This document shows positions 18,091-61,156 of a DNA stretch of 64,000 nucleotides, piece by piece (position 1 is the first letter of the stretch; each line of letters starts with the position of its first letter). The notes beneath the pieces were generated by a model. The model was not told the origin of the DNA, made no database searches, and worked only from the letters and a program-made list of their open reading frames with translations. Made by a program: the position numbers and the translations under genes. This stretch comes from Gemmatimonadota bacterium (GTDB lineage: Bacteria; JAAXHH01): NCBI GenBank assembly GCA_009837395.1, contig VXTP01000043.1:1-64000 (forward strand). The letters are read 5' to 3'.

Positions 18091-18117
18091 CTTTAGGGTG
18101 CATCCTTCAGGGTGCAC
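18091..18117. repeat. Tandem duplication of the SGNH gene tail including its stop codon
   Basis: Two 13-bp copies (18091-18103 and 18105-18117) match at 11 of 13 positions. On the minus strand the first carries the TGA of the SGNH gene and the second lies in the spacer before the PhyH start. Confidence 0.6.
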
Positions 18118-18715
18118 TGGTCGTTTTGCTAAACCACCACGCCGGCCAGGCGAGCACCAGTTCGGCCAGCGCGGAGTAACCGCCATCGGCCGGATGAACG
18201 CGGTCGCCGAGGGCCGCTTCGCTCTGCCAGACTCCGCTGTCATGCAGTTCGTGAATCACCTCGAGATAGGGCACGCCGATTCTACCGGCGATTTCGCCGA
18301 CGAGTGAGGAAACCTCCACTCTCCGGCCGTGTTCGTCTGTGTCGATCCCGGGTGGCGGCCCGACCATCAACGTGGGAAACAGGGACCGGGCGCGTTTCAG
18401 TATCTCCTCGGTGTTGCGAATGGTATCGGCGCGGTCCACACGCGTCTTCCCGTCTATGATCCAGCAGTCGTTCGCGCCGAATCCGAACACCACCCGGCCG
18501 TCGTGAGGTATGAGACGCCGGGCTTCCACCTCCCGTTCCCAGCGCTGGAGCACATCGGTGCTCGTGTCGCCGCGGATGCCCAGGTTGTAGCAGGTGATGG
18601 CGTTCTCTTCGGACCTCGACGCGGCACAGGCCCGTCCAGGCCAGCCGAGATAGGCCGGGTCGCCGGTACCGTTTATGTAGGAATCACCGATAAAGTAAAT
18701 GCGGATGTCGTTCAA
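18107..18715 (-). CDS. SGNH/GDSL-type esterase or lipase
   Basis: A 202-aa SGNH-fold hydrolase that removes acyl or acetyl groups. The blocks are visible in order: nucleophile Ser in YFIGDSYING, Gly in LGIRGDTS, Asn in GFGANDCW and the Asp/His pair in DRVHPADGG. The TTG at 18715 is preferred because AGAGGA lies 8 nt upstream and it gives the expected strand LNDIRIYFIGDS at the N-terminus; a frame from 18820 would add 35 atypical residues. It is first in an operon with PhyH and aroA. Substrate unknown. Confidence 0.82.
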   Translation of the reverse strand: MNDIRIYFIGDSYINGTGDPAYLGWPGRACAASRSEENAITCYNLGIRGDTSTDVLQRWEREVEARRLIPHDGRVVFGFGANDCWIIDGKTRVDRADTIRNTEEILKRARSLFPTLMVGPPPGIDTDEHGRRVEVSSLVGEIAGRIGVPYLEVIHELHDSGVWQSEAALGDRVHPADGGYSALAELVLAWPAWWFSKTTSAP

Positions 18716-19077
18716 TTTCGTTCCTCTCTGCCTGTCCCTGGTCCGGTACATGGCCCGCGGTCCCGGTTCCAGTCCGTTATACAATCCGTAAATACCGGCC
18801 CGCCAATACCAGTCCGCCAATCAAACTGAGCTCACAGGAAAACCTTCCCCGCCCGACGGTTGGTTTTGCACGCCCCGCCGGCTTATTTTACACGCCGATC
18901 AAGGGCGTGCACGTCGCCTTAAGCATACGAATTCACGTGGTATTTATCAATTGCCAATTTCGCGTCCGCGTGGAAAATTGATTATGGTACGATGTGTTGA
19001 AAAGGCCGTCAACAACCGTGATCGGTCAACAACTGCGATTGAAGAGAAAGTGAAGAGACAAGTGAAGGACCGCAACC
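18716..19077. other. Divergent spacer between SGNH hydrolase and MDR oxidoreductase genes
   Basis: A 362-bp non-coding stretch. The part from ~18930 to 19010 is AT-rich and should hold the promoter for the plus-strand oxidoreductase, but I could not pick a convincing -35/-10 pair. No other structure was recognised. Confidence 0.4.
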
Positions 19078-20085
19078 ATGCGCGCATACGTCATTGACCA
19101 GAATCAGCTTCGCCGGTCCGAACTTCAGGAACCGGGGGAGCCCGGACCCGGCGAGGCGCTGGTCAGGGTCCGGTCCGTATCACTCAACTACCGGGACCTC
19201 ATGGTCGCCAGGGGCCGGTATGGCAAACCCTTCGAGGGCAGGTTCGTCGCCGGGTCCGACATGGCAGGCGACGTGGTGAAGACGGGAACGGGAGTGTCGG
19301 GCATCCGGCGGGGCGACCGGGTCGTGAATGCGCCGTTCCTGAGCTGGCCCGCCGGAAGACTTACGCCCGATGGGATGAAGACCCTGGTGGGCGCAGCCGG
19401 CGTGGACGGCGTGCTGTGCGAGCAAGTGCTGTATCCCGCGGATGCCCTGGTTTCCATGCCCTCCCACTTCTCCTACCACGAAGGCGCGACGTTGCCCATC
19501 GCCGGACTGACCGCCTGGGCTTCGGTCGTATCGCAGGGTCGATTGCAGGCGGGAGAGTGGGTCCTGCTGCACGGCACGGGCGGGGTGTCCGTGTTCGCCG
19601 CACAACTCGCGGATCTTACTGGCGCACAAGCTTTATTGACCACTTCATCCGAAGAGAAAGCCCGACGGATGAAGGATGAATTCGGCGTGCTGGAGACCTT
19701 TGATTACCGGGACGAAGACTGGCCGGAACAGGTCCGTTCCTTTACCGGCGGCGCCGGGGTCGACCTGGTCGTGGACGTGGCAGGCGGCCAGACGTTCGCG
19801 AAGTCCCTGAAAGCCTGCGCGCTGCACGCCCGGATATCCCTCGTGGGCATCCTGGACGGCTTCGAAACCCGCCTTAACCCCTTCGATATCATCGGCCGGC
19901 AGATCCAGGTACGGGGGATCTACACCTCCTCTACCGAAGACCTGCGCGACCTGGCCAGGGCCTGCGAAGCGTCGGGACTCAGGCCCTGCATCGACCGCGT
20001 GTTTTCCTTCGATGAAGTGCCCGCGGCCTACGACTACCTCGAATCACAACGGCATATAGGCAAGATCGTGTGTGCGTTGCCGTGA
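19078..20085 (+). CDS. Zinc-independent medium-chain dehydrogenase/quinone oxidoreductase-like protein
   Basis: A 335-aa MDR-superfamily NAD(P)-dependent reductase. The catalytic-zinc Cys of alcohol dehydrogenases is absent: the equivalent site reads SLNYRDLMVARG, as in quinone oxidoreductases. The nucleotide-binding part has LLHGTGGVSVFAAQLA. NPFDIIGRQIQVRGIYTSS is typical of the YogA/alcohol-dehydrogenase-like branch. It converges with the selD fusion gene (17-bp gap) and stands alone on its strand. Substrate unknown. Confidence 0.85.
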   Translation: MRAYVIDQNQLRRSELQEPGEPGPGEALVRVRSVSLNYRDLMVARGRYGKPFEGRFVAGSDMAGDVVKTGTGVSGIRRGDRVVNAPFLSWPAGRLTPDGMKTLVGAAGVDGVLCEQVLYPADALVSMPSHFSYHEGATLPIAGLTAWASVVSQGRLQAGEWVLLHGTGGVSVFAAQLADLTGAQALLTTSSEEKARRMKDEFGVLETFDYRDEDWPEQVRSFTGGAGVDLVVDVAGGQTFAKSLKACALHARISLVGILDGFETRLNPFDIIGRQIQVRGIYTSSTEDLRDLARACEASGLRPCIDRVFSFDEVPAAYDYLESQRHIGKIVCALP

Positions 20086-20101
20086 CGGGGCCGCTTCGGG
20101 C

Positions 20102-22399
20102 TCAGCGGATCCGCAGGTGCCGTTTCCGGTCGGTCACCCGTCCGATGCAGGCCGCCCGTACGTAACCGGCCGCCCGGAGTTTCGCGATTACATCGTCGAT
20201 TTCGGAAGGGGGAACGCCGGCCAGGAGACCGCCGGACGTCTGGGGATCGAAGAGGAGGGCGTCCCGTCCGTCCACCGCGCCAAGCTTCGCCGCGTCCGCC
20301 GCGCCAGACTCCGACTCCACTTGCCATCTCTTCTGCAAGTGTTCCCGGTTGGACGGCGCGAGGGTACTTTCCACGCCGCCGGCCACGCAATCCGCCGCGC
20401 CGGTGTAAAGCGGTATCCGGTCGATCTCGAGCTCAGCGCCCATGCCGCTGGCTTCGAGCATCTCGACCAGGTGTCCCGCCAGGCCGAAGCCGGTCACGTC
20501 GGTGACGGAAGGAATGCCGACCTGGGCGAGGATCCTCGCCGCCTCCGCGTTGGACCGCAGCATGCCCTCGAAGACTTCGTCGACCCAGCTCCCTCGGGCC
20601 TTCAGGTGCATGTCGGCCGCCAGGATGACGCCCGTGCCGATGGGCTTGGCCAGGATGAGACCGTCGCCGGGACGCAGTCCGCCCTTCCTGAATACGACGT
20701 CGCTGCCGGCCAGGCCGTTCATGGTTACGCTGACCGCCGTCTCCGTTCCCTCGCTCGTATGCCCGCCGAGGAGGGTGACCCCGAGGCCCCGGGCTTCTTC
20801 CGCGATGCCGCCCATGAGCTGTCTCAGGTCGTTTGCCACGAGGGGTTTTTCCGCGTAGGGCAGCGTGACCGTAACCAGTGCGGAGTGGGGTTCGGCCCCC
20901 ATGGCGTACAGATCGGATGCGGCGTGGACGAGGGCGATGCGGCCGAAGAGGTGCAGGTCGCCGGTAAAGGCGCGGAAGCCGTCCACGGTCTGTACCAGCG
21001 ACCGGCCTGGAGGGATCTCGAGTAGCGCCGCGTCATCGGCGTCGTGCAGGCCGATCCGAACGTCCTCCCGGTCGAATACCTCAAGTTCGTCGAGCACGCC
21101 GGTCAATACGCTAGAACCGACCTTGGCGCCGCACCCGGCGCAGCGCATGGCCGACACTTCCGGGCCTCCGCCGGCTTTTTCACCGACGGGCGGGGCATCG
21201 TTGGTGGACGGCGCCTCGCGGGCGATCGGCGCATCGCCGGCCGGGTCCATGGGCGGAAGCAGCGCCGGTTCGAACTTCCGCATCCAGCGCCGATCGATCC
21301 AGTCCTTCAGCCGCCACACCCAGGGGCCGTGGAAGGAGACGTGGCGGCGGCTCGCGACGGCGTTCCGGGTCCCGGTCATGAGTAGCGCGAGCGCGGAACC
21401 CTGGGGTCTGTAGGGGACCAGGGACCGGTTTTTCAGCCAGGCATGGAGGTTTCGGGCAAGGACCGGTCCCTCGCGGACCGCGTAGACGCCCGATTTGGGC
21501 AGGGAACGGGAGGGAAATTCGATACAGTCCCCCGCCGCGAAGACGTTGTCGTAACCTATGGTCTGCAGGGTCGGCCGGACGCGGATGAACCCGGCGCCGC
21601 TGGTCTCCAGGTTTGTAACCTTCAACAGACCGGGCGGTGCTCCGCCCGTTGCCCAGAGCAGGAAGTCGCTGGGCAGGGACGGATGATCTTCGAAATGGAC
21701 GCCCGTTTTATCTACGCCCGTGACCCGCAGGCCGGTCAGGCAGGCGATCCCCTTTTCTTCGAGGTACCGCCCGATGATCGCGACGACACGGGGACGGTGC
21801 CCGGTCAGCAAAGCGGACTGCGATTCAACGAGCGTGATCTGGACGGGCGCGAATCGCTTTCCCCATCTCGAGTGCATGGCGAAGGCCAGCTCCACGCCCG
21901 CTGCTCCGCCTCCCGCGATGACGATCCGCAACGGCCGGCCGTCGGTCTGGTGGTTTTCCTCGAACTCGTGAATCCGCTTCAGCAGCAGGCCGAGCGGCCT
22001 CGTGGGCACGGCGTGTTCCCGCACCCCCGGGGTGTCCATGCCCCGGGGAATGGAACCGACGTTGATCGAAAGGGCATCGTAGGCAAGGGGAGGACGGCCG
22101 TTGTCGAAGTACACCTGCTGGAGGACCGGATCGAGGCCGGCCACCCGGGCCCGGACGAACCGGACACCCGCCCAGTTGCAAAGCGGCCTCAATTCCATTT
22201 CCATCTCGTCGGGCCGGTACAGGCCGGCCAGGCAACCGGGCAGCATACCGGAATAGCAGACGGTGGACTCGTCCGAAATGAGCGTGACGCGGATGCCGCC
22301 CAGGGCCTTCTTCATGGCCAGCATGCGGATCACCTGCACGTGGGAGTGGCCACCGCCGACCAGCACGAGATCCTTTTTAAAAGGGATGGTCTGATTCAT
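20102..22399 (-). CDS. selD: Fusion of NDH-2-like FAD/NAD(P) oxidoreductase and selenophosphate synthase SelD
   Basis: Residues 1-~370 are a pyridine nucleotide-disulfide oxidoreductase of the NDH-2 type (LVLVGGGHSHVQVIRML, IAGGGAAGVELAFAM, VFAAGDCIEF). Residues ~415-765 are SelD, which makes selenophosphate from selenide and ATP. The SelD nucleophile region CAGCGAKVG keeps a Cys and the following Lys in the Cys17/Lys20 positions; it is Cys, not selenocysteine. Later motifs include TVDGFRAFTGD, GGHTSEG, DVTGFGLAGH and DPQTSGGLL. An Ala/Pro-rich linker joins the halves. This fusion is known in other bacteria. No selenium-using gene (selA, selB, mnmH) is nearby, so the use of selenophosphate is unknown. 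Confidence 0.93.
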   Translation of the reverse strand: MNQTIPFKKDLVLVGGGHSHVQVIRMLAMKKALGGIRVTLISDESTVCYSGMLPGCLAGLYRPDEMEMELRPLCNWAGVRFVRARVAGLDPVLQQVYFDNGRPPLAYDALSINVGSIPRGMDTPGVREHAVPTRPLGLLLKRIHEFEENHQTDGRPLRIVIAGGGAAGVELAFAMHSRWGKRFAPVQITLVESQSALLTGHRPRVVAIIGRYLEEKGIACLTGLRVTGVDKTGVHFEDHPSLPSDFLLWATGGAPPGLLKVTNLETSGAGFIRVRPTLQTIGYDNVFAAGDCIEFPSRSLPKSGVYAVREGPVLARNLHAWLKNRSLVPYRPQGSALALLMTGTRNAVASRRHVSFHGPWVWRLKDWIDRRWMRKFEPALLPPMDPAGDAPIAREAPSTNDAPPVGEKAGGGPEVSAMRCAGCGAKVGSSVLTGVLDELEVFDREDVRIGLHDADDAALLEIPPGRSLVQTVDGFRAFTGDLHLFGRIALVHAASDLYAMGAEPHSALVTVTLPYAEKPLVANDLRQLMGGIAEEARGLGVTLLGGHTSEGTETAVSVTMNGLAGSDVVFRKGGLRPGDGLILAKPIGTGVILAADMHLKARGSWVDEVFEGMLRSNAEAARILAQVGIPSVTDVTGFGLAGHLVEMLEASGMGAELEIDRIPLYTGAADCVAGGVESTLAPSNREHLQKRWQVESESGAADAAKLGAVDGRDALLFDPQTSGGLLAGVPPSEIDDVIAKLRAAGYVRAACIGRVTDRKRHLRIR

Positions 22400-22740
22400 G
22401 ACAGTTTCTACTTTGTATCGACACCGAATCCGCGGTCACATGGCATCGGACGCCTGCGAGACCCGTGGATTCCAACGACGGATTCCTTCGACCGCGAGGG
22501 ATAGGAATATACATGGCGACACCGAGCAGCCAAAGACCATAATGGCTCGCGAGACCGTATAGACCAAAGACCATGAAGACCTCGGCAAATAACCGAAACT
22601 GCCCGTTTTGCGGTACCATTAGAGTAACCCGACCGACCTTGACACGCGCAGTAGATTAAACTGACGATGGGGCCTTTCGTTAACACGGTGAACCGCGTGC
22701 GAGTGGTCCGGAAAAACCTAAACTTCCATAAGGAGCATCC
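22400..22740. other. Non-coding spacer upstream of an unknown gene
   Basis: A 341-bp divergent spacer. It has a TTGACA at 22639-22644 without a good -10, and an 11-bp direct repeat CCAAAGACCAT at 22530-22540 and 22564-22574. No gene was recognised. Confidence 0.4.
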
Positions 22741-23274: not shown

Positions 23275-23395
23275 CGTGCGTGGATCCGGCACGCCGGGCC
23301 GATAAACTCATATGACTGACCGGAGCCGGCTGCCGGCTTGACAACCGACTGGATACACAGTCGAACCACCGCGCCCGACGGGACCGATTACCGGC

Positions 23396-23424
23396 TTGAC
23401 ACCCCGTTTAATCAGGACCATATT
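23396..23424 (+). promoter_or_regulatory. Promoter of the RraA-sulfatase operon
   Basis: A perfect TTGACA at 23396-23401 is followed after 17 bp by CATATT at 23419-23424. It is 89 bp upstream of the RraA-like start. The 11-mer CCGGCTTGACA also occurs ~58 bp further upstream. Confidence 0.5.
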
Positions 23425-23512
23425 CACCGGGTTCATTCCACCGAATTGACGGACCGATTTGACGGTCTGATTTCCTGCCTCTTTTCCGCACGCACCCTGG
23501 AAGGAGCGATGC

Positions 23513-24250: not shown

Positions 24251-25728
24251 AATGCGTTTTCATCGTCCTTGATACCGTCCGCCGGGACTACCTTTCGACC
24301 TACGGCAACGACTGGGTGCATACGCCCGCCCTGGACCGACTGGCCGAACGAGGCGTCGTCTTCGACAACCACTGGGTGGGATCGCTGCCCTGCATGCCCG
24401 CGCGGCGGGAGTTCATGACCGGGCGGTACAACTTCATCTACCGGGGCTGGGGTCCCATCGAACCCTACGACGATACGCTGCCGGGCGAGTTGCGGAAGAA
24501 CGACGTCTTTACCCACCTGCTGACCGACCATTACCATTACTTCGAGCTCGGGGGCGAGAACTACCACACGGCGTTCAACACCTGGGACTTCTTCCGCGGC
24601 CAGGAGAACGACTGGTGGGCGTCCCACGTGGACCGCATGGCCCTGCCCGACCACCTGGGGCAGCTCAGCCAGCAGAATTACGGCAATCGGAAACTGCAGC
24701 AGCGGGAGGAGGACTTCTCCGGTCCGAAGACCGCGCAGGCGGCCATCGAGTGGCTGAAGACGAACCGGGCGTCCGACGACTGGTTCCTGCAGGTCGAGAT
24801 CTTCGATCCCCACGAGCCCTTCTACTGCACCGAGAAATACCGGGCCATGTACGGCGACGATTACGACGGACCGTTCTACGACTGGCCCAGCTACGACGAA
24901 GTCCACGAATCCCCTGAAGCGGTCGAACACATCCGTAAGTGCTACGCCGGGCTGCTCACGATGACGGACCACTGGGTGGGCAGGATATTCGACACGCTCG
25001 ACGATCTGGGACTGTGGGACGACACGCTGGTCGTATTCACCACGGATCACGGGACCATGCTGGCGGAGCATGACTTCTGGATGAAGAACATTATGCCGCT
25101 GTACAACGAGATCGTCCGGATACCGTTGATCGCGAGCCTGCCCGGCAACGAGCGGGCCGGCACGCGCACCGGAGCGCTCACGCAGACTATCGACCTGATG
25201 CCGACCTTTCTCGACTATTTCGATACCCCCCTGCCGCCCCACGTCCAGGGACGGTCCCTGCGAAAGGTGCTGGACGGCGACGGCGTCCGGGCGGACGGCA
25301 TCTTCGGTTATTTCGGGATGGCCATGAACTTAACGGACGGAAGGCACGTGTACATGCGCAACCCGGTCAACGAGGACGCGGGACCGCTGTACGCGTACAC
25401 GGCCATGCCCACGGGCGGTCTGAACCGCTGGTATCCCAGGGAGGTGTACGACCGGGTCGAAACGGGCCGGTACTTCGGCCATACCTACAACCTCCCGTTG
25501 TACAAGATCCCCACCGACGGCAAGGTCCCGCGGCACCACCCCGACGAGGCGTCCTACGCGGGGCGGAACCAGCTGTTTGACGTGGTGGAGGACCCCGCGC
25601 AACAACACCCTATAGAAGATCCGGCGCTGGAAGCCCGGTTCACAGAGCGGATCGCCCGGCATCTGCAGGCCTGCGAGGCCAGGCCCGAACAGTTCACCCG
25701 CCTGGGGATCGATCCGCCCGAAGCGTAG
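24247..25728 (+). CDS. Sulfatase (type I, Cys-type formylglycine motif)
   Basis: A 493-aa alkaline-phosphatase-superfamily sulfatase. Metal-binding Asp residues are in IVLDTVRRDY and FTTDHGTMLAEHDF. The formylglycine precursor is in LPCMPARREFMTG, a C-x-P-x-R motif that must be converted by a maturase such as the one at 32990. The ATG at 24247 overlaps the RraA stop, so the two are translationally coupled. No signal peptide is visible, suggesting cytoplasmic action on an imported sulfated compound. Substrate unknown. Confidence 0.9.
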   Translation: MKCVFIVLDTVRRDYLSTYGNDWVHTPALDRLAERGVVFDNHWVGSLPCMPARREFMTGRYNFIYRGWGPIEPYDDTLPGELRKNDVFTHLLTDHYHYFELGGENYHTAFNTWDFFRGQENDWWASHVDRMALPDHLGQLSQQNYGNRKLQQREEDFSGPKTAQAAIEWLKTNRASDDWFLQVEIFDPHEPFYCTEKYRAMYGDDYDGPFYDWPSYDEVHESPEAVEHIRKCYAGLLTMTDHWVGRIFDTLDDLGLWDDTLVVFTTDHGTMLAEHDFWMKNIMPLYNEIVRIPLIASLPGNERAGTRTGALTQTIDLMPTFLDYFDTPLPPHVQGRSLRKVLDGDGVRADGIFGYFGMAMNLTDGRHVYMRNPVNEDAGPLYAYTAMPTGGLNRWYPREVYDRVETGRYFGHTYNLPLYKIPTDGKVPRHHPDEASYAGRNQLFDVVEDPAQQHPIEDPALEARFTERIARHLQACEARPEQFTRLGIDPPEA

Positions 25729-25757
25729 ACGGTTTTGTCGATCCGCCCGAAGCTTAG
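25709..25757. repeat. Tandem duplication of the sulfatase gene tail including its stop codon
   Basis: TCGATCCGCCCGAAGCGTAG at 25709-25728 ends the sulfatase gene. A copy with one difference lies at 25738-25757, just before the next gene. The period is 29 bp. Confidence 0.8.
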
Positions 25758-25769
25758 GATGGCATAATC

Positions 25770-27566
25770 ATGAAGAAGAATCTAATCCCGCGACGATTCC
25801 AGGCGACGCTCCTGCTCGCCTTCGCGCTGTGGTCAGTGAACTGCGGCGGCCAGCCGGCGCCGGACGATCTCGACGATAGCGCTCCCGAACTGTTCTTCGG
25901 CCAGACCGCTGAAATGAAGGAGGCGGCCCACGCCGCGCTGATGGAGCGCCTGCCCGATGACGCCGCGCCCCTCGAGTACCAGGTGTTCCGGTACATGGCC
26001 GCGGAGCCCAAGAGCATGGACCAGGGCGTCTCGATCTACGTGGCGGGCGGAAGCGAATTCCACTTCGAGCGGCTCGTGATGTTCGGAGTCAATGGGGAGC
26101 TTCTTCCCGGCGCGGCGCAATCGTGGGAGCCCTCCGAGGACGGCAAGACCTGGACCTTTCAACTGCGCCGGGACGGGCGGTGGAGCGACGGCCGGCCCGT
26201 CACGGCCCACGATTTCGAATTCACCTTCAAGCGGTTCCTCCATCCCAATGCGGGCAACGTCTACGCCTTTCTCTATTACGACATCAAGGGCGCCCGGGCC
26301 TACAACCAGCGGGAAACGGACGACGTCGATACCGTAGGTGTCCGGGCCGTGGACGACTACACTCTGGTCATCGAGACGGAGCAGTCCTGCGCCTTCCTGC
26401 CCCATATCACCGCCTACCTTACTTCCGCGCCCGTCCCGCCCTGGCAGGTGGAGAAATACGGAGACCAGTGGGCGCTTGCCGGCACCTGCCTGACCAACGG
26501 CCCCTTCCAGCTCGAGACGTGGAAAACGGGCCAATACATGACCTTCGGCCTGAACCCCTATTACACCGGGTCCAATCCCGGTCATCTCCGCCAGATCGTC
26601 CGCATATTCAACGCCATGGTCGGTTCGGCCAGCGCGGCGAACGACATGGGCCTGCTGCCCTACGAAAACGACGAGATCGACGTGATCGACGTCAGCCCCA
26701 TGGTCTACGGCGGCCTGCGCGACGACCCGGAATGGAACGAACCGGCGTGGTCCTACGACCAGTTCACGACGATCTACCTGTTCTTCCGGACGCGCCAGCC
26801 CCCCTTCGACAACCTCAAGGTCCGCCAGGCCTTCGCCCACGCCATCGACCAGGTGTCGCTGAACGAGACGATACTCCAGGGCATGATGATCCCCGCTTAC
26901 ACCATGCTGCCGCTCCATTTCCCCGGCTACGTGGGTGACAAGTACCGGGACCACCAGCGGTTCGACGTGGACCGCGCCCGGCAGCTGCTCGCCGAGGCCG
27001 GCTATCCGGACGGCCGAGGTTTCCCGCGGATGGATCTCTGGCTCGCCGATGCCACCCCCGCTTCCGCCATCAGCCAGGCGTCCCAGGCGATCCAGGAGAT
27101 GCTCAAGGAGAACCTGAACATCCAGATCGACATCCGGAACACGGAAGGCGCGGCGTACCGGTCGGCCATGTACAACTGGGAGTTCCCCATGAGTATCGTC
27201 GGGTTCAACTACGACTTTCCCGATCCCCACAGCATGCTGGGCATCATCTGGCGTTCCCAGCCCAGGGGATATACCCGTCACGACTGGCTGAACCCGGAGT
27301 TCGACCGGCTGATCGACGCGGCCGCCGGAGACCTGAACCACGAGGCACGCCTGGCGATGTACGACGAGGCCGAGGGGATTCTCGCCTCCGAGGCCGCGGC
27401 CGTCTTCCTGTGGCATGTCAAGACCTACCAGTTGCGCAAGCCCTGGCTGAAGGGGTTCCGGGAAGACCGGTGGGGCAACTTCCCCAATTACCGTAACGCG
27501 AACACGTACTACGACCTTTACATCGGCCAGGAGGCCGTGAACAGCGGCCGGCGTGTCGACTATTGA
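25770..27566 (+). CDS. Family 5 solute-binding lipoprotein of a peptide/oligosaccharide ABC importer
   Basis: A 598-aa OppA/DppA-type binding protein. The N-terminus has positive residues, a hydrophobic core and Cys in SVNCGG near residue 25, so it is probably lipid-anchored, although the lipobox is not canonical. Shared family blocks include WSDGRPVTAHDFEF, HAIDQVSL and LLAEAGYPDGRGF. It is a paralog of the protein at 14294 and likewise has no permease or ATPase beside it. It lies between sulfatase and PhyH genes, so it may bind the sulfated or modified substrate they process. Confidence 0.88.
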   Translation: MKKNLIPRRFQATLLLAFALWSVNCGGQPAPDDLDDSAPELFFGQTAEMKEAAHAALMERLPDDAAPLEYQVFRYMAAEPKSMDQGVSIYVAGGSEFHFERLVMFGVNGELLPGAAQSWEPSEDGKTWTFQLRRDGRWSDGRPVTAHDFEFTFKRFLHPNAGNVYAFLYYDIKGARAYNQRETDDVDTVGVRAVDDYTLVIETEQSCAFLPHITAYLTSAPVPPWQVEKYGDQWALAGTCLTNGPFQLETWKTGQYMTFGLNPYYTGSNPGHLRQIVRIFNAMVGSASAANDMGLLPYENDEIDVIDVSPMVYGGLRDDPEWNEPAWSYDQFTTIYLFFRTRQPPFDNLKVRQAFAHAIDQVSLNETILQGMMIPAYTMLPLHFPGYVGDKYRDHQRFDVDRARQLLAEAGYPDGRGFPRMDLWLADATPASAISQASQAIQEMLKENLNIQIDIRNTEGAAYRSAMYNWEFPMSIVGFNYDFPDPHSMLGIIWRSQPRGYTRHDWLNPEFDRLIDAAAGDLNHEARLAMYDEAEGILASEAAAVFLWHVKTYQLRKPWLKGFREDRWGNFPNYRNANTYYDLYIGQEAVNSGRRVDY

Positions 27567-27702
27567 GGCGCCCGGGCGATGCACGCTTTGACCGGCGAGT
27601 CGACTATTGAGGCGCCCGGGCGGTATGCGCGCTTTGACCGGCGAGTCGACTATTGAGGCGCCCGGGCGATATGCACGTTTTGACCGGAGGATCGACTACT
27701 GA
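27555..27702. repeat. 44-46 bp tandem repeat array spanning a stop codon (3 copies plus partial)
   Basis: Units begin with GTCGAC at 27555, 27599 and 27645, and a partial copy (ATCGACTACTGA) at 27691. The first unit holds the last codons and TGA of the binding-protein gene, and each later unit repeats that TGA. The final partial copy abuts the ATG at 27704, so the whole spacer is made from copies of the upstream gene's tail. Confidence 0.88.
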
Positions 27703-27703
27703 C

Positions 27704-28528
27704 ATGGATAACGGACACCAGTACACCGCGATGACCGATGCGCAGCGGGAACACTTCGACCAGTACGGCTACCTGGTCATCGAAGACGCGCTGCCTCCCG
27801 CAGTCGTCGCCGAATTGAACGAGGCCATTGACGAAGTGCACGAACGGCACCGGAAAGAGGGCACGCTGGGGAAAAACGGCGACCTGAACCTCCGCAATTG
27901 CATCGTGGCCCACGACGACTTCCTGCAGTTACTGGACTGGCCGTCGACCGTCCCCCTGGCCTGGGGCGCGCTGAACTGGAACATCCAGATGATCACCTCC
28001 CATCTCATCGTGCTGCCCTCGGGGGAAGAGCCCACGGAGGAGGCGAAGCGCGGTCACGGCATGCACCGGGACGGCGGCACGTCCTTCGTGGAAATGCAGG
28101 AGCCCCATCCCCGGATCCTGTTGAAGATCGCCTACGTGCTCAGCGACCAGACCGATCCCGCCTCCGGCGCCACCTCCCTGGTGCCCGGCAGCAACCGGAT
28201 CACCGGTCAGCCCCCTACGGACCCGGCGACGGGCTGGCCCTACGGCGCCATCCAGATGAACCTGCCGGCCGGCAGCGCCTTCATGTTCGAGCAGCGTACT
28301 TTCCACAGCATCGGCGCCAACTGGTGTGGCCACGACCGCCGGACCATCTTCATGGGGTACGCGTACCGCTGGGTCAAGCCCATGGATTACATCCAGATGC
28401 CGGAGAGGCTCGTGGACCGGTGCTCGCCCCTGCAGAAGCAACTGATTGGCGAGGTGAGTGACGCGCTCAGTTACTATCTGCCGGAAGACGAGGACGTGCC
28501 GCTGAAATCGTTCCTCGCCGAGAAATGA
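27704..28528 (+). CDS. Phytanoyl-CoA dioxygenase (PhyH) family protein
   Basis: A 274-aa Fe(II)/2-oxoglutarate oxygenase. Iron ligands are H121 and D123 in GMHRDGG and H201 in RTFHSIGAN, with R212 or R213 for 2-oxoglutarate. The ATG at 27704 has GGAGG at 27686-27690; earlier in-frame Met codons lie inside the tandem repeat and are unlikely. It sits between a binding-protein gene and a sulfatase gene in the same direction. It is only distantly similar to the other two PhyH proteins here, so probably has a different substrate. Confidence 0.87.
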   Translation: MDNGHQYTAMTDAQREHFDQYGYLVIEDALPPAVVAELNEAIDEVHERHRKEGTLGKNGDLNLRNCIVAHDDFLQLLDWPSTVPLAWGALNWNIQMITSHLIVLPSGEEPTEEAKRGHGMHRDGGTSFVEMQEPHPRILLKIAYVLSDQTDPASGATSLVPGSNRITGQPPTDPATGWPYGAIQMNLPAGSAFMFEQRTFHSIGANWCGHDRRTIFMGYAYRWVKPMDYIQMPERLVDRCSPLQKQLIGEVSDALSYYLPEDEDVPLKSFLAEK

Positions 28529-28541
28529 GAAGCTGAGAAGC
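28526..28541. repeat. 2 x 8 bp tandem duplication over the PhyH stop codon
   Basis: TGAGAAGC is repeated head to tail at 28526-28533 and 28534-28541; the first TGA is the stop of the PhyH gene. Confidence 0.6.
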
Positions 28542-28545: not shown

Positions 28546-29895
28546 ATGGCCAATACCCTCCTGCTCATCTCCGACGAGCACAATCCCTTCTATTCCTCGG
28601 TTTACGGCCATCCTTTCGTCCAGACGCCGGCTATGGATCGACTCGCCAGGAACGGCGTCACCTACGATAGCGCCTACTGTCCGTCGCCCCTGTGCACTCC
28701 CAGCCGGTCCGCCTTCATGTCGGGGCGCAGGGTGCATGAGATTCAGGCCTATTCCAACTGCACCATCGGCGTCGAGCCGGATATACCCACCTACGGGAGC
28801 GCCTTGTCGGAGCAGGATGTGTATTCCGTGCACGTGGGCAAAACGCACGTCTTCGCGCCGAGCAGTGAGCTGGGATTCCGCGAGACGCGCCTCGCCCGGG
28901 AAAAGACGGGCGCCGGCGATCCGGAGATCGGCCGTCGACCGTTCCGGATACGACGCGCCGCCGCGGAACGGGCTGCCCAGTTCGGTATAAAGGAGTCGCA
29001 CCTGCGGCTCGACCTGGAACGCGTCGACACCGCCATTGACTGGCTGACGAACGCCGCACCTTCGCTGGAGCGGCCCTGGACCCTTTCGGTCAACATCATC
29101 CATCCCCATTTCCCCCACTACACCTCGCAGGAACTGTGGGATCTTTATCCCCAGGGTGGCGATCTTCCGGCATTCGGGGTCGAAGAGGAAACGGCCGCCC
29201 ACCCCCGGGCCCGTGAAGTGCGCGAACATTTCCAGACGGACCGGTTCACCGAGAACCAGGCACGGGGCCAGCGGAGGGGTTATCTTGCCTGCGTGACCTT
29301 CGTGGACCGGCAACTGGCGCGGCTGGTCGAGGCGCTGAAGGCAACGGGGCTGTACGACGATACCAACGTCATCTACACGTCGGACCACGGGGAGATGCTC
29401 GGGAAGTTCGGCATGTGGTGGAAATGCTCCCTCTACGAAGACGCGAGCCGAATCCCCTGTATCGCGGCGGGTCCCGACTTTTCCTCCGGGTCGCGGGTTT
29501 CGACGCCGGTGGACCTTCACGACGTCCAGGCGAGCCTCTTCGCGTCGACGGGCGCCGAACGGCCGGCGGACTGGGTGGGTACCTCTCTGCAGCGCCTGCC
29601 CGCGGCCGATGATCACCGCGTGGTGTTCTCGGAGTACCATGGCCACGGGGCGCGGCACAGCGCTTTCATGGTCCGGAAAGGAAAATGGAAGTACATACAT
29701 CACATCGGGGCGCCCCACCAGTTGTTCGACCTGGGCCGGGACCCCGATGAGCTGAACAACGTGTATGAGGCCCACCCGGCGGTAGCAGCCGACCTGGAAA
29801 GGGAACTCCGCTCGATCTGCGATCCCGAGGCGGAGGACGATCGCGCGTTCCGGTTCATCGAGGCGCAGCTCGAATCCATGTCGGCCGCCGATTGA
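28546..29895 (+). CDS. Sulfatase (choline-sulfatase-like, CTPSR motif)
   Basis: A 449-aa sulfatase with the canonical formylglycine motif CTPSR in SPLCTPSRSAFMSGR (near residue 51). Metal-site residues are in LLISDEHNP and TSDHGEMLGKFGMW. The WWKCSLYEDASRIP segment resembles choline/aryl sulfatases. No signal peptide is visible. It starts 17 bp after the PhyH stop, so the two are likely co-transcribed. Activation would depend on a maturase, and the radical-SAM one at 32990 is three genes downstream. Confidence 0.9.
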   Translation: MANTLLLISDEHNPFYSSVYGHPFVQTPAMDRLARNGVTYDSAYCPSPLCTPSRSAFMSGRRVHEIQAYSNCTIGVEPDIPTYGSALSEQDVYSVHVGKTHVFAPSSELGFRETRLAREKTGAGDPEIGRRPFRIRRAAAERAAQFGIKESHLRLDLERVDTAIDWLTNAAPSLERPWTLSVNIIHPHFPHYTSQELWDLYPQGGDLPAFGVEEETAAHPRAREVREHFQTDRFTENQARGQRRGYLACVTFVDRQLARLVEALKATGLYDDTNVIYTSDHGEMLGKFGMWWKCSLYEDASRIPCIAAGPDFSSGSRVSTPVDLHDVQASLFASTGAERPADWVGTSLQRLPAADDHRVVFSEYHGHGARHSAFMVRKGKWKYIHHIGAPHQLFDLGRDPDELNNVYEAHPAVAADLERELRSICDPEAEDDRAFRFIEAQLESMSAAD

Positions 29896-30000
29896 ATGCC
29901 GACCGCCGACTGATTGCCGACCGCCGACTGAATATCGACCGCGGGCTGAACGCCGACCGCGGGCTGAACGCCGACCATCGATTGAATGCCGACCGACGCC
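29884..30000. repeat. Degenerate ~18-20 bp tandem repeats after the sulfatase stop codon
   Basis: The sulfatase ends GCCGCCGATTGA. About five more degraded copies of a GCCGACCGCCGACTGAAT-like unit follow up to the next gene, most still containing TGA. Confidence 0.7.
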
Positions 30001-34336: not shown

Positions 34337-34392
34337 GCCGGCCCGATGCGCACCGGCCCGTCGCGCACCGGCCCGTCGCGCTCCGGTCCGCC
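34333..34392. repeat. 15-bp tandem repeat (about 4 units) after the maturase stop
   Basis: GCGCACCGGCCCGTC repeats at 34348-34362 and 34363-34377, with a degraded copy at 34378-34392. The first, most diverged unit at 34333-34347 contains the maturase TAG. Confidence 0.7.
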
Positions 34393-37572: not shown

Positions 37573-37650
37573 GGACTACGCTCCGGGTGGATTGGTTAAC
37601 GGTGTATGAGCCGATGCCAGGTTCGGATCCTCCAAAACCAGGCGTAATCG

Positions 37651-37727
37651 CCCGGCACGAGCCAAGTACGAGCCCGGCACGAGCCCGGCACGAGCCAAGC
37701 ACGATCCGAGCACGATCCGAGCACGAG
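37651..37727. repeat. Seven tandem 11-bp units in the TonB receptor leader
   Basis: Seven exact 11-bp units run without gaps from 37651 to 37727; consensus CC-N-R-G-Y-ACGA-K with variation mainly at positions 3-6. The array lies between the predicted promoter and the start codon of the TonB receptor gene. Confidence 0.85.
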
Positions 37728-37749
37728 CTGTGCATCGGCCCGGACTGAA

Positions 37750-46988: not shown

Positions 46989-47486
46989 ATGGCGACACCG
47001 CTCGAATTCACGGACGCGGCGCGGGAGCGCGCGGCAAAGATCCTGGACCGCTATCCTGAAGAATACCGGAAGTCGGCCGTCGTGCCGCTCCTCCACCTCG
47101 CGCAGGAAGAGTGGGGGTACGTCTCGCCCGAGGCCATGGCCTGCGTGGCCGGTCTGATCGGCTGCTCGCCCGTCAAAGTCGCGGAGATCGCGACGTTCTA
47201 TCCCATGTTTAACAAGGAACCCGTGGGCGAGCACGTGCTAGCGGTATGCCATACGCTGCCCTGCGCGCTGACCGGCTGCGGGAGCGTTTTCGATCACCTC
47301 TCGGAAAAACTCGGCATCGGGCTGGGCGAGTCCACGGAGGACGGCCGGTTCACGCTGAGGAAGTCGGAATGCCTCGCGGCCTGCGACCGGGGCCCCGTGC
47401 TCCTGGTCAACCGGCGACTGCATACCCACGTTTCTCCCGAGAAGGTCGACGAAATCCTCGCGGAACTCGATAAAGGTTCTCGATAA
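46989..47486 (+). CDS. nuoE: NADH-quinone oxidoreductase subunit E
   Basis: The 24-kDa thioredoxin-like subunit of the NADH module with a [2Fe-2S] cluster (N1a). The 165-aa protein has CHTLPC (two ligands) and CLAACD (two ligands), and ATFYPMF earlier. Its last codons come from a tandem 13-bp duplication: the second copy, read in a shifted frame, supplies the TAA stop. Confidence 0.94.
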   Translation: MATPLEFTDAARERAAKILDRYPEEYRKSAVVPLLHLAQEEWGYVSPEAMACVAGLIGCSPVKVAEIATFYPMFNKEPVGEHVLAVCHTLPCALTGCGSVFDHLSEKLGIGLGESTEDGRFTLRKSECLAACDRGPVLLVNRRLHTHVSPEKVDEILAELDKGSR

Positions 47487-47491
47487 AGGTT
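47466..47491. repeat. Perfect 2 x 13 bp tandem repeat providing the nuoE stop codon
   Basis: CTCGATAAAGGTT occurs at 47466-47478 and 47479-47491. Because 13 is not a multiple of three, the second copy is read in another frame and its TAA (47484-47486) ends nuoE. Confidence 0.85.
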
Positions 47492-52996: not shown

Positions 52997-53027
52997 CCGG
53001 TACGGCCGGCTAGCCCTGGACCCTTTC

Positions 53028-54952
<1,925 letters not shown>

Positions 54953-54962
<10 letters not shown>

Positions 54963-55006
54963 CCCGGGACCGCAAACCCGAAGGAACTGAAGGAACCGAA
55001 GGAACT
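54953..55006. repeat. Two tandem repeats in the nuoL-nuoM spacer, one spanning the stop
   Basis: GGGACCGTAACCC (54953-54965, containing the nuoL TAA) is followed by a near copy at 54966-54979. Then three 9-bp GAAGGAACT/C units run from 54980 to 55006 and supply Shine-Dalgarno-like AAGGA sequences before nuoM. Confidence 0.75.
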
Positions 55007-55010
55007 GTAC

Positions 55011-56657
55011 ATGACGGAACTGCCTTACCTGTCTCTCATCATCTGGCTGCCGGTCCTGGGCGCCGTCCTGCTCCTCTTCGTCAAAGGGGACACGGCCGCC
55101 CGGTGGGTGGGATTCGGCGTTTCGGCCCTGGTGCTCGTCCTCTTCGCGGTGTGCTTCGGCGCCTTCAAGGCGCACCTGGGCGAACCGCAGTTCGTGGAGC
55201 GCATGCCCTGGATCGAATCCCTGGGCGTGTCCTATCACATCGGGGCGGACGGGATCAGCATCCTCCTCGCCGGGATCACCGCGCTCATGTGGCCCCTGGC
55301 CCTGCTCGGCACCTGGACGATCGTGAGCGAGCGGGTCCGGGCCTACCAGGTTTTCATGCTCCTGATGGAAACCACCCTGATGGGCGTGTTCTTCTCCCTC
55401 GACCTGTTCCTGTTCTTTCTCTTCTGGGAAGGCATGCTGATCCCCATGTACTTCCTGATCGGCATCTGGGGTTATGAAAACAGCGCCCGGGCGGCCCTGA
55501 AGTTCTTCCTGTTCGCCGTGTTCGGCAGCCTGCTCATGCTGGCCGCGGTCATCACGCTGGCCTTTCTCCACCACCAGGCCCACGACGTCCTCACCTTCGA
55601 GATAGCGGCGCTTTACCAGTTGTCCATACCGCCGGAGGTCCAGTTCTGGCTCGCCCTCGCCTTCATCGCCGCCTTCGCGGTGAAGGTGCCCATGGTGCCC
55701 TTTCACACATGGCTGCCCGATGCCATCGTCCTCGCCGTCGTACTCGTCAAGATGGCGGCCTACGGGTTCATTCGCCTGACCCTTCCGCTGTTTCCCGATG
55801 CCCTCACCGAGCTGGCGCCCCTGATGTGCGCCGTGGCGGCGGCCGGGATCGTCTACGGCGCGCTGATCGCCCTGGCGCAATCGGATATCCGGCGGATGAT
55901 CGCCTATTCGACGATCAGTCACGCGGGGTTCGTCGTGCTGGGCGTATTCGCACTGAACCAGCACGGTATCCAGGGCGCGGTCGTCCACATCGTCAGCCTG
56001 GCGTTGTCCACGGGCGGACTGTTCCTGGCCGCCATGATGCTCGTGCAGCGCCGGAACACCTGGGACATGGAAGCCTACGGCGGGCTTTGGCACACGATTC
56101 CGGTGTTCTCCGCTTTCCTGCTCGTATTTACCCTGGCTTCCGTGGGCCTGCCGGGCCTGAGCAGTTTCGTCGGGGAGTTTCTCATACTGGTCGGCGTGTT
56201 CCAGCGGAATATCCTGATCGCGGCCGTCGCGGCCACGGGGATCATCCTCGCGGCCGTCTACATGCTCAGGATGTACCGCAAGGTGGTCTTCGGCCCAGTG
56301 ACGAAGGAGGAGAACCGGGGGATCAGGGACCTTTCCTTCCGGGAGACGGCCGTGCTTGCGTGCATGACGCTGTTCATCATCTGGATCGGCGTGTATCCGA
56401 ATCCTTTCCTGCGGACCATGGAAGCTTCGGTGCAGAAGCTGCTGGTCCAGACCCATCGTCTGGCCGAGTCACCGCCGGCCGGGATGACTCAAGTGTCCAT
56501 CGAACCGATGCCGGCGGACCCGAACGGCCCGGGTGATCCGGTCGCCCCGGGTGATCCGGCCGCCCCGGGTGATCCGGCCGCCCCGGACGGGCTGACCGGC
56601 CCAAATGGTCCGGCCGGCCCCGATGCCACCCCTGACACCAGCCAGGATACGCGATGA
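55011..56657 (+). CDS. nuoM: NADH-quinone oxidoreductase subunit M with a repetitive Pro/Gly/Asp C-terminal tail
   Basis: Antiporter-like pumping subunit, 548 aa. Conserved parts include LFFLFWEGMLIPMYFLIGIW (Glu), KVPMVPFHTWLPDA (Lys) and GLPGLSSFVGEFLIL. After the last helix (~residue 470) comes a tail of about 50 residues rich in Pro, Gly, Asp and Ala with three perfect GDP-x-AP repeats (from 56532). Such a tail is not usual for NuoM. Its TGA overlaps the nuoN ATG. Confidence 0.94.
   Translation: MTELPYLSLIIWLPVLGAVLLLFVKGDTAARWVGFGVSALVLVLFAVCFGAFKAHLGEPQFVERMPWIESLGVSYHIGADGISILLAGITALMWPLALLGTWTIVSERVRAYQVFMLLMETTLMGVFFSLDLFLFFLFWEGMLIPMYFLIGIWGYENSARAALKFFLFAVFGSLLMLAAVITLAFLHHQAHDVLTFEIAALYQLSIPPEVQFWLALAFIAAFAVKVPMVPFHTWLPDAIVLAVVLVKMAAYGFIRLTLPLFPDALTELAPLMCAVAAAGIVYGALIALAQSDIRRMIAYSTISHAGFVVLGVFALNQHGIQGAVVHIVSLALSTGGLFLAAMMLVQRRNTWDMEAYGGLWHTIPVFSAFLLVFTLASVGLPGLSSFVGEFLILVGVFQRNILIAAVAATGIILAAVYMLRMYRKVVFGPVTKEENRGIRDLSFRETAVLACMTLFIIWIGVYPNPFLRTMEASVQKLLVQTHRLAESPPAGMTQVSIEPMPADPNGPGDPVAPGDPAAPGDPAAPDGLTGPNGPAGPDATPDTSQDTR
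56532..56585. repeat. 3 x 18 bp in-frame tandem repeat in the nuoM tail
   Basis: Units at 56532-56549, 56550-56567 and 56568-56585 encode GDPVAP, GDPAAP and GDPAAP. The second and third are identical at the DNA level. Confidence 0.9.
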
Positions 56658-58129: not shown

Positions 58130-58179
58130 GCCTGGCCGTTCCGCCGCTTCCGCCTATGGGCCGGCATCGGCGAATTGGG

Positions 58180-58210
58180 TTGACTTCCGGCCGGTTTCAC
58201 GCCATATATT
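58180..58210 (+). promoter_or_regulatory. Promoter of the polyprenyl diphosphate synthase gene
   Basis: TTGACT at 58180-58185 precedes TATATT at 58205-58210 (19-bp spacer, or ATATAT at 18). Transcription would start near 58217, about 40 nt before the predicted ATA start. Confidence 0.55.
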
Positions 58211-58255
58211 CAGGTATTTCAGCGGGCGCCACCGCCAGCCAACCGGAGGGCATTC

Positions 58256-59227
58256 ATAGACTTCCGAACCATCAGCGCACCGGTCCAGGGCCATCTCGAC
58301 CAGTTTGAGCAGAAGATCAGCGAGATCTCCCAGTCCGACGTGGAGGTCATCAATCAGATCTGGGCCCACCTGGTTCGCACCAAGGGCAAACGGCTGAGAC
58401 CCGCGCTGGTATTCCTTTCGGCCTCGGCATACGGTACGCCGAGCCGGGAGACCATGCTGGCGGCGTTCATCATCGAGCTCTGCCACACCGCGACGCTGAT
58501 TCACGACGACGTGGTGGACCGTGCGACCACGCGTCGCGGTCTGCCCACGCTGAATTCCAAATGGGACAACCACGTCTCGGTGCTGATGGGCGACAACGTG
58601 ATCGCCCGGGTGTTGACGCTGATCGCGAAACTCGACTGTTCGCGGATCACGGCGAAGATCGCGGCATGCGTGGAACGGTTGACCGAGGGCGAGTTGCACC
58701 AGGCCATCCGCCGGTTCAACATCCGGACGTCCGAGGCGGAGTATTACCGCATCATCAGCAACAAGACGTCCTCGCTCATCGCGTGCGGGTGCGATTCCGG
58801 CGCGTACCTGTCAAGCCGTTCGGCCGAGACGGCCTGCCGGTTCGGCAATTTCGGCGAGAAACTCGGCATGGCTTTCCAGATTACCGATGACATCCTGAAT
58901 TTCACGGGGGACGAAGACGTCATCGGAAAACCGAGGGGAAACGATTTCCGGGAAGGGACGGTTACCCTGCCGCTGATCCACGCCCTCCGGAACGCAACCA
59001 CCGACGGCAACAGGCGCGTGGAGCAGTTGATGAAGGAGGAATGGAGCGACCGGGTCTGCGACGAGATCGTCGAGTTCGTTCACGTCCATGACGGCATCGG
59101 CTACGCGAAAGGCAAAGCCTTGGCCTACGCGGAGGAGGCCAAGCGGATCCTCGGCGAAGAGCCGGAGACCCGGGCGAAGGACGCGCTCCTGAACATGGTC
59201 GATTACGCTATAGAACGGGATCGATGA
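58256..59227 (+). CDS. ispB: Polyprenyl diphosphate synthase, apparent ATA start codon
   Basis: Trans-prenyltransferase that makes the long isoprenoid chain for quinones. The first Asp-rich motif is LIHDDVVDRATTRRG; the second is QITDDILNFTGD with Asn at the last position. KGKRLRP near the start and the C-terminal RDR match IspB. Family members have ~30 residues before KGKRLRP. Those residues are encoded here (from DFRTISAPV), but there is no ATG, GTG or TTG in frame between the stop at 58181 and a GTG at 58340. GGAGGG at 58245-58250 is 5 nt before ATA at 58256, giving 323 aa, the size of Escherichia coli IspB. Confidence 0.85.
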   Translation: MDFRTISAPVQGHLDQFEQKISEISQSDVEVINQIWAHLVRTKGKRLRPALVFLSASAYGTPSRETMLAAFIIELCHTATLIHDDVVDRATTRRGLPTLNSKWDNHVSVLMGDNVIARVLTLIAKLDCSRITAKIAACVERLTEGELHQAIRRFNIRTSEAEYYRIISNKTSSLIACGCDSGAYLSSRSAETACRFGNFGEKLGMAFQITDDILNFTGDEDVIGKPRGNDFREGTVTLPLIHALRNATTDGNRRVEQLMKEEWSDRVCDEIVEFVHVHDGIGYAKGKALAYAEEAKRILGEEPETRAKDALLNMVDYAIERDR

Positions 59228-59234
59228 TGCAGGT

Positions 59235-60110
59235 ATGGATACGATATCCGTAATCGTCATTACCTATAACGAAGAACCGCATATCGATACCTGTCTGCGG
59301 AGCGTTTCCTGGGTGGACGAAATCGTGGTGGTGGACTGCGGAAGCACCGATCGGACGGTCGAGATCTGCAACGGCCACGACAAGGTCCGGTTGTATCACG
59401 AAGACCGGCACGGCAGCGGACAGCAGAAGCAGCAGGCGCTGGACCGGGCGGTTTCCGAATGGGTGTTGAACCTGGACGCGGACGAGCGGCTCAGCGAGCC
59501 GCTTGAGTCGGAGATCCGAAGCCTCCTGGATGCTTCCGCGCCCTGCGACGGATACCATATGCCCAGGGAGAACTACTTCCTCTCCCGGCACATCCGCCAT
59601 GCGGCCGGCTGGGGAGACGACCGGCCGCTCCGGCTGTTCCGCCGGAGCAAGGCGAGGGTCACACGGACCCAGGTCCACGAGACCTTCGTCGTCGACGGGC
59701 CCACGGGCCGCCTCGATGCACCGCTGGTACACGATGCCTATACCAGCCTGTACCAGTATATCGAGAAGCTGAACGAGTACACGTCGATCGAGGTGAGGAA
59801 CCGGTTGAAAGCGCGGCCGGACCGGAAGATAACCTGGGTGCACATCGCCCTCGCTCCCCTGGGTGCGTTCTGGAAGCTGTACGTGATGAAAAGAGGATAT
59901 CTCGATGGGATGCAAGGACTTCTGCTTTGCCTTCTCTCATCGGTATCGGTCATGTCCGGGTATGCGAAGACCTGGGAATACGGGATGTACAGGAAGCGGG
60001 GCGGCCGGATGTTCCCGCCCATACGAACCGAAGAGGTACAGACCCGGCAGCCGGGCTACAACCGGCTGATCCGGGGTGGCGACGACGAATTCAACTGGAA
60101 GGACGGCTGA
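59235..60110 (+). CDS. Family 2 glycosyltransferase, WaaE/KdtX-like
   Basis: A 291-aa GT-A glycosyltransferase resembling the LPS core beta-1,4-glucosyltransferase WaaE. The nucleotide-sugar site is SVIVITYNEEPHID with VVDCGSTDRT, and the metal-binding acids are in LNLDADER. QKQQALDRA is also typical. A hydrophobic segment near residues 200-235 may associate with the membrane. It begins 7 bp after the prenyl synthase gene and is followed by a radical-SAM gene, so it heads an envelope-glycan group. Confidence 0.86.
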   Translation: MDTISVIVITYNEEPHIDTCLRSVSWVDEIVVVDCGSTDRTVEICNGHDKVRLYHEDRHGSGQQKQQALDRAVSEWVLNLDADERLSEPLESEIRSLLDASAPCDGYHMPRENYFLSRHIRHAAGWGDDRPLRLFRRSKARVTRTQVHETFVVDGPTGRLDAPLVHDAYTSLYQYIEKLNEYTSIEVRNRLKARPDRKITWVHIALAPLGAFWKLYVMKRGYLDGMQGLLLCLLSSVSVMSGYAKTWEYGMYRKRGGRMFPPIRTEEVQTRQPGYNRLIRGGDDEFNWKDG

Positions 60111-60116
60111 CCACCG

Positions 60117-61103
60117 ATGGGCCTTAAAGACTCCCTTTACAAGACGGCGTCCCGGTACGAGCCGGTTCAGCGAGTCCTGCGCAATTCCATTGTCGCGCGG
60201 AAACTGCGATTTCCGGAAGTGATCAGTATCGAGGGGTCGAGTTACTGCAATGCCGACTGCATCATGTGCCCGCGGGAACTGTTGAGCCGCAAGAAGGGCA
60301 ACATGTCCATGGACCTGTATCGCAAGATCATCGACGAATGTGCCGAAAACGCCCGCTACATCCGGCTCATACAACCCTTCATGTTCGGGGAGTCCTTCAT
60401 CAACAAAAAGCTTGTCGACATGATCGCGTATACGAAGCAAAAGCTGCCCCGCGTGCCGGTCAGCGTGAGCACCAACGGATCCCTCATCACACCGCAGAAG
60501 GCGCAGGAGCTCATCGATTGCGGGCTGGACAAGATCAACATCGACATCGACGGGGCGACGGCGGAGACCTTCGAGGCGGTGCGCGTCGGGCTCGACTACG
60601 AACAGGTGGTGGAGAACGCGCGGTACCTGATGGAACTGAAGCGGTCCGTCCGCAGCAAGACGCCGGAAATCACGGTGACCATCATCAACATGGCCGAGAC
60701 CCAGCACGAGATCGACGCGTTCAGGGACCTCTGGAAGCCCATCGCAGACCACGTGGTAGTGCAGAGCTACACCACCTGGACGGGCAGCGTGGAAGACAAG
60801 AACGTGGGCGACCAGGCCGATGCCTCGGCCACCGGCGGTTTCACCTTCCCCTGCAAGCATCCCTGGGAGGAGTTCGTCATCGCGAACGACGGCCGGGTGT
60901 CCATCTGCTGTCTCGATTTCGACTTCAAGGTGGAAGTGGGCGACGTCTCGAAGCAGTCGATCAGGGAGGTCTGGAACGGCGCGCCGATCCAGGAGATCCG
61001 CCAGAAGATGATCGAGAACCGTTACGACGAACTCGAAATCTGCAGCCAGTGCAACAACTACATCTTCCAGACGGAATGCGCCTGGCACCAGGTGTGGAAG
61101 TGA
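60117..61103 (+). CDS. Radical SAM/SPASM domain protein
   Basis: A 328-aa radical-SAM enzyme with the cluster motif CNADCIMC (near residue 44) and a C-terminal SPASM-type region: CKHPWEEFVIANDGRVSICC and CSQC with a final Cys in ECAW. Such proteins modify peptides or small molecules; several sit in polysaccharide loci without known substrate. It lies between GT2 and GT4 genes, so a role in modifying a cell-surface glycan or its carrier is possible but only inferred. Its stop lies in a 4 x 15 bp repeat. Confidence 0.87.
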   Translation: MGLKDSLYKTASRYEPVQRVLRNSIVARKLRFPEVISIEGSSYCNADCIMCPRELLSRKKGNMSMDLYRKIIDECAENARYIRLIQPFMFGESFINKKLVDMIAYTKQKLPRVPVSVSTNGSLITPQKAQELIDCGLDKINIDIDGATAETFEAVRVGLDYEQVVENARYLMELKRSVRSKTPEITVTIINMAETQHEIDAFRDLWKPIADHVVVQSYTTWTGSVEDKNVGDQADASATGGFTFPCKHPWEEFVIANDGRVSICCLDFDFKVEVGDVSKQSIREVWNGAPIQEIRQKMIENRYDELEICSQCNNYIFQTECAWHQVWK

Positions 61104-61156
61104 TGCCGGCACAAGTGATGCCGGCGGAAGTGATGCCGGCGGAAGCGATGCCGGCG
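61097..61156. repeat. 4 x 15 bp tandem repeat spanning the radical-SAM stop codon
   Basis: Units at 61097, 61112, 61127 and 61142 share the GAAGTGATGCCGGCG consensus with one or two changes. The TGA in the first unit (61101-61103) is the real stop; the other copies fill the spacer. Confidence 0.88.

What the first reader, a model, noticed from the sequence alone, without database searches (positions are those of the whole stretch)
18091..61156. Gene tails including the stop codon are tandemly duplicated into spacers at many junctions
At least nine gene ends show the same structure: the final 8-45 bp with the stop codon are copied head-to-tail into the spacer (18091, 25709, 27555, 28526, 29884, 34333, 47466, 54953, 61097). 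Unit sizes differ (8, 13, 14, 15, ~19, 29, 44-46 bp), sequences are unrelated, and they occur on both strands. This argues against one mobile repeat and for a process that repeatedly duplicates at translation or transcription ends. Extra stops are a possible benefit, or it may be slippage in a permissive genome.
Basis: partly seen in the sequence, partly recalled or inferred. Interest (0 to 1): 0.72.

Follow-up and report, generated by a model that had tools for sequence, protein, structure and literature searches.

The report
Tandem-duplicating gene spacers in Latescibacterota
In this group of mostly uncultured marine bacteria the short gaps between genes keep growing and shrinking by head-to-tail copying of 8-46 base units, and because the gaps are so short the copied piece often includes the stop codon of the gene before; it looks like ordinary repeat slippage tolerated where it does no harm, but at an unusually high level.

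Summary
Eight of the nine listed sites are tandem arrays that include the upstream stop codon; the array at 34338-34390 starts just after the stop. In 1.06 Mb of this genome (a Latescibacterota MAG), 46 of 846 stop codons lie in tandem arrays, against 8 starts, none in a shuffled copy, and 0 of 689 stops in six control genomes. Syntenic relatives show copy-number change in exact unit steps at the same junctions, so assembly artefact is very unlikely.

There is no sign of a process aimed at stop codons. Arrays fill 4-8% of all spacer DNA (controls 0-0.5%). The stop falls at a random place within the unit. Unit length shows no frame preference at stops (18/46 divisible by three), unlike inside genes (157/176). 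Once spacer shortness is allowed for, stop-crossing arrays are only slightly above expectation (26 vs 18.5; 18 vs 14.9 if 15 nt before the next start are protected), and fewer than expected between convergent genes. Best reading: recurrent tandem duplication in spacers, filtered by selection; starts and reading frames are protected, stops tolerate it. Why this lineage's spacers are so prone remains open.

The parts
18085..18116 (-). 14-bp unit x2.3 over the stop of gene 18107-18751(-) and the RBS of gene 17316-18080(-)
   Evidence: TRF; sequence; spacer 26 nt here versus 12/0/18/0/0 in relatives
25709..25758 (+). 29-bp unit (about 20 bp copied plus 9 bp filler) x1.7 over the stop (25726-25728) of the sulfatase gene
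   Evidence: sequence; single copy in G001 and G004, other arrays in G002 and G006
27548..27702 (+). 46-bp unit x3.4 between the family-5 solute-binding protein gene (ends 27566) and the PhyH gene
   Evidence: TRF; spacer 46-47/92-93/137 nt in relatives
28526..28541 (+). 8-bp unit x2 over the stop of the PhyH gene (ends 28528); short, weak on its own
   Evidence: TRF; spacer 17 nt versus 9 nt in all five relatives
29885..29995 (+). 18-bp unit x6.2 over the stop of a second sulfatase gene (ends 29895)
   Evidence: TRF; spacers 10/46/64/82/118 nt across six species
34338..34390 (+). 15-bp unit x3.5 in the spacer, starting after the stop (34336); does not contain it
   Evidence: TRF; sequence
47466..47491 (+). 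13-bp exact duplication at the end of gene 46989-47486; shared with G010, absent in G006, G001, G008
   Evidence: TRF
54949..54980 (+). 13-bp unit x2.4 over the stop of nuoL (ends 54962)
   Evidence: TRF; Pfam
54980..55007 (+). 9-bp unit x3.1 in the same nuoL-nuoM spacer, not over the stop
   Evidence: TRF
61096..61158 (+). 15-bp unit x4.2 over the stop of the radical SAM/SPASM gene (ends 61103)
   Evidence: TRF; one unit fewer in G010
37650..37728 (.). 11/33-bp array in a divergent spacer with no stop codon: same phenomenon away from stops
   Evidence: TRF
56528..56586 (+). 18-bp (frame-preserving) array inside the 3' coding end of nuoM
   Evidence: TRF

Best explanation
The arrays are lineage-specific minisatellites (VNTR-like) made by recurrent short tandem duplication and copy loss in intergenic DNA. 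A tandem duplication leaves both flanks intact: the first copy still ends the upstream gene and the last copy still carries the downstream ribosome-binding site. A unit that covers a stop is therefore nearly neutral, while one that covers a start or shifts a reading frame is removed. As units (median about 17 nt) are about as long as many operon spacers (median about 52 nt before collapsing arrays), many units cover the stop for geometric reasons. Shown: abundance, copy-number change in unit steps, absence of frame or phase preference at stops, avoidance of starts. Inferred: the copying step itself (replication slippage or unequal exchange) and near-neutrality.
For: Spacer TR coverage 4.2-8.5% in five genomes of the genus versus 0-0.5% in controls. 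Coding arrays 157/176 with period divisible by 3, stop arrays 18/46. Start-crossing arrays 0.15-0.26 of uniform expectation (codirectional; none in divergent). Stop phase uniform. Conditional on junction, stop excess 26 vs 18.5, or 18 vs 14.9 with an RBS margin, and a deficit at convergent junctions. Unit-step spacer lengths across species: 10/46/64/82/118, 32/50/68/86/122, 46-47/92-93/137. 9 of 12 stop-crossing junctions have the array in one species only. Tandem-type indels between G000 and G010: 11 of 87 spacer indels versus 0.7% in shuffles; 13 per 10 kb in spacers versus 0.29 in coding.
Against: A residual stop excess (z about 1.5-2.9) remains in short codirectional spacers. High-identity coding arrays are only about 1.3 times the GC-matched controls while spacer arrays are about 10 times, so a plain genome-wide rise in slippage rate does not by itself explain the pattern. 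No repair gene loss was found that would explain a high rate: MutS, MutL, RecJ, XseA and the Pol I 5'-3' nuclease are present. Most spacer indels are not recognisable tandem copies (76 of 87 versus G010).
Confidence: 0.72

Rival explanations
1. A duplication process is directed at gene ends, for example at ribosome release or transcription termination, so stop codons are hotspots.
For: In codirectional junctions stop-crossing arrays are 2.2-2.7 times a uniform placement over all spacer positions; array starts cluster between -20 and +20 of the stop.
Against: Most of the excess disappears when conditioned on junction length; no excess at convergent junctions; phase of the stop within the unit is random; spacer-only arrays outnumber stop arrays.
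Confidence: 0.12
2. The arrays are kept because they are useful: backup stops, insulation of downstream ribosome-binding sites, or a relay for reinitiating ribosomes.
For: Some units contain a stop beside a start (61096: GTGATG; 29885: TGAATG); [AG]TGA contexts 35% at array stops versus 21% elsewhere, not significant at n=46.
Against: No preference for periods divisible by 3; arrays come and go between close relatives at the same junction; units fold only marginally better than shuffles (z -0.19).
Confidence: 0.1
3. Assembly or binning artefact.
For: All genomes compared within the genus are assemblies from metagenomes; tandem repeats are a known source of assembly error.
Against: Separate MAGs in the public records, from several named bin sets, show arrays at the same junctions with unit-step differences, and the same 13-bp duplication is shared by G000 and G010. 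Controls run through the same pipeline show none.
Confidence: 0.02

Closest known systems
Tandem repeats of Borg extrachromosomal elements (PMC9879509)
   Same: Pervasive, fast-evolving, independently arising arrays of unrelated sequence; units in ORFs divisible by three, intergenic units not.
   Different: Borg arrays are perfect, A-rich and about half genic; here arrays are imperfect, GC-rich, strongly concentrated in spacers, and on a bacterial chromosome.
Mycobacterium tuberculosis VNTR, e.g. the rnc-fpg1 spacer (PMC2734929)
   Same: A spacer of a few bp in most relatives expanded to about 280-360 bp by tandem repeats; copy number varies; spacer length marks the repeats.
   Different: There one array beginning 40 bp after the stop is described; here about 16% of codirectional junctions with a measurable spacer carry one, often over the stop.
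MIRU elements of mycobacteria (PMC12548453)
   Same: Repeats at tight gene junctions that leave both genes intact.
   Different: MIRUs are one dispersed, apparently mobile sequence family inserting at start codons; here units are unrelated and come from the local sequence.
TAACTGA direct repeats of Beggiatoaceae (PMC4679880)
   Same: Intergenic direct repeats, some overlapping the stop of the upstream gene.
   Different: One fixed heptamer, mostly just upstream of starts.

Membership tests
Intergenic minisatellite / VNTR | Head-to-tail copies | tested here: met
   TRF
Intergenic minisatellite / VNTR | Copy number varies between related genomes in unit steps | tested here: met
Intergenic minisatellite / VNTR | Copy number varies between strains of one species | not tested
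   no same-species genomes were compared
Dispersed mobile repeat (MIRU, REP-like) | Same sequence at many loci | tested here: not met
   units differ in length and sequence between junctions
Borg-type tandem repeats | Coding units divisible by three, intergenic units not | tested here: met
   157/176 coding versus 18/46 stop and 50/108 spacer arrays
Borg-type tandem repeats | Perfect units without SNPs | tested here: not met
   median match 88% in spacer/stop arrays
End-joining duplication (Ku-dependent) | Ku present | tested here: not met
   PF02735 absent in all genus members searched

The most novel reading that the evidence does not exclude
This lineage has a mutational process that duplicates short segments specifically in non-coding DNA between genes, perhaps linked to translation ending or to naked DNA between genes, rather than a general rise in slippage. 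The main hint is that spacer arrays are about 10 times controls while coding arrays are only about 1.3 times.
Probability: 0.12. Interest if true: 0.7.

Novelty: new member of a known kind. Interest (0 to 1): 0.4.

Why it matters
It gives an abundant chromosome-wide example of spacers growing by tandem duplication, with many replicate junctions and about a dozen species in synteny, so the rate, filter and fate of short duplications can be measured. It also cautions that repeats over stop codons can arise from geometry alone.

Tried and rejected
Mobile repeat family: rejected, units unrelated. Backup in-frame stops: rejected, no multiple-of-three preference. Hairpin-driven slippage: unit folding barely differs from shuffles (z -0.19 +/- 0.10). 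Ku-dependent end joining: Ku absent. Loss of mismatch repair or of RecJ, ExoVII or the Pol I nuclease: genes present. Stop-start reinitiation motif: weak, not significant. Pairwise gap classification at more than 9% divergence lost most tandem signal. The S. meliloti control for spacer length change is small (15 and 13 junctions).

Full report
Where it is. The window is part of a 607-kb contig of a 3.8-Mb MAG. Public relatives found with a window protein are mostly labelled Candidatus Latescibacterota, two of them Gemmatimonadetes. Eleven further genomes of the same genus are held, and five of them were aligned to the window in synteny at 87-94% nucleotide identity.

The observation. TRF and reading of the sequence confirm tandem copies at all nine places, and at eight of them the copies include the stop codon. 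At 34338-34390 the array starts after the stop. At 25709 the 29-bp unit contains about 9 bp that are not copied from the single-copy ancestor. At 47466 a 13-bp duplication shifts the frame, so the working stop lies in copy 2.

Is it more than chance? 46 of 846 stops lie in arrays of TRF score 40 or more, against 8 starts; a codon- and base-shuffled copy gives none. In the genus as sampled 65 of 1427 stops are covered, in six control genomes (four GC-matched) 0 of 689. The syntenic genomes are not independent, but G000 alone gives 46/846.

Is it about stops? Arrays cover 5.6% of spacer DNA in G000 (4.2-8.5% in the other four genus members) and 0-0.5% in controls. By class there are 176 arrays in coding DNA, 108 in spacers, 46 over stops and 5 over starts. 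Against uniform placement over all spacer positions, stop-crossing arrays are 2.2-2.7 times expected in codirectional junctions and 1.4-1.8 times in convergent ones, where spacer-only arrays are raised equally; starts are at 0.15-0.26 in codirectional and zero in divergent junctions. That test mixes short and long spacers. When each array is compared with the placements possible in its own junction, G000 gives 26 observed versus 18.5 expected in spacers under 60 nt (z 2.9), 18 versus 14.9 if 15 nt before the start are protected (z 1.5), 8 versus 5.1 in longer spacers, and 5 versus 7.8 in short convergent spacers. The position of the stop within the unit is uniform (KS p 0.43). Periods over stops are divisible by three in 18 of 46, inside genes in 157 of 176. 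The pattern is that of duplication anywhere in spacers with starts and frames protected, with at most a small residual preference for stops.

Evolution. At the same junctions spacers differ between species by whole units: 10/46/64/82/118 nt at 29895, 32/50/68/86/122 at 106524 of the contig (both 18-nt units), 46-47/92-93/137 at 27566 (46-nt unit). Of 112 junctions readable in at least four species, 41 carry an array in at least one species and 12 carry one over a stop, 9 of these in one species only. Between G000 and G010 (94.2% coding identity) 11 of 87 spacer indels of 5 nt or more are tandem copies (0.7% in shuffles), 13 per 10 kb of spacer against 0.29 in coding. Spacer length differences at the 75th percentile are 18-46 nt in the genus and 2.5-4 nt in a small Sinorhizobium control at similar divergence.

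Mechanism. Replication slippage or unequal exchange, with selection against hits on starts and frames, explains the anatomy. What is not explained is why spacers of this lineage carry about ten times the high-identity arrays of controls while coding DNA carries only about 1.3 times: either purifying selection in genes is strong enough to hide a raised rate, or the process favours non-coding DNA. Ku is absent, so Ku-dependent end joining is unlikely; MutS, MutL, RecJ, the large ExoVII subunit and the Pol I 5'-3' nuclease are present.

Known relatives. Borg tandem repeats share the frame rule in ORFs, the independent origin and the speed (PMC9879509). The rnc-fpg1 spacer of M. tuberculosis shows the same expansion of a tight spacer at one locus (PMC2734929). 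MIRUs and Beggiatoaceae TAACTGA repeats also sit at tight junctions but are fixed sequences (PMC12548453, PMC4679880). In the terms searched, I found no paper describing this in Latescibacterota; the one genome paper opened does not use the words tandem or intergenic.

Noticed in passing
56528-56586: Frame-preserving 18-bp x3.3 array in the 3' coding end of nuoM; the junction length there differs in relatives, so the NuoM tail may vary by repeat number.
   Followed up: partly
1178-1318: 27-bp/9-bp imperfect array inside a 629-aa ORF (19-1908) that the session's gene caller missed.
   Followed up: no
42038/42043 junction: A 4-nt convergent spacer here is 326 nt in G002, with a 46-bp x7.7 array, and carries 46-bp arrays in G001 and G008.
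   Followed up: partly
13197-13237: GACCA-rich 5/15-bp array in the spacer before 13300, present in G010 with more copies, absent in the other relatives.
   Followed up: no
25770-27566: The family-5 solute-binding protein has 20 or more relatives per genome across the genus, a large paralogous set.
   Followed up: no
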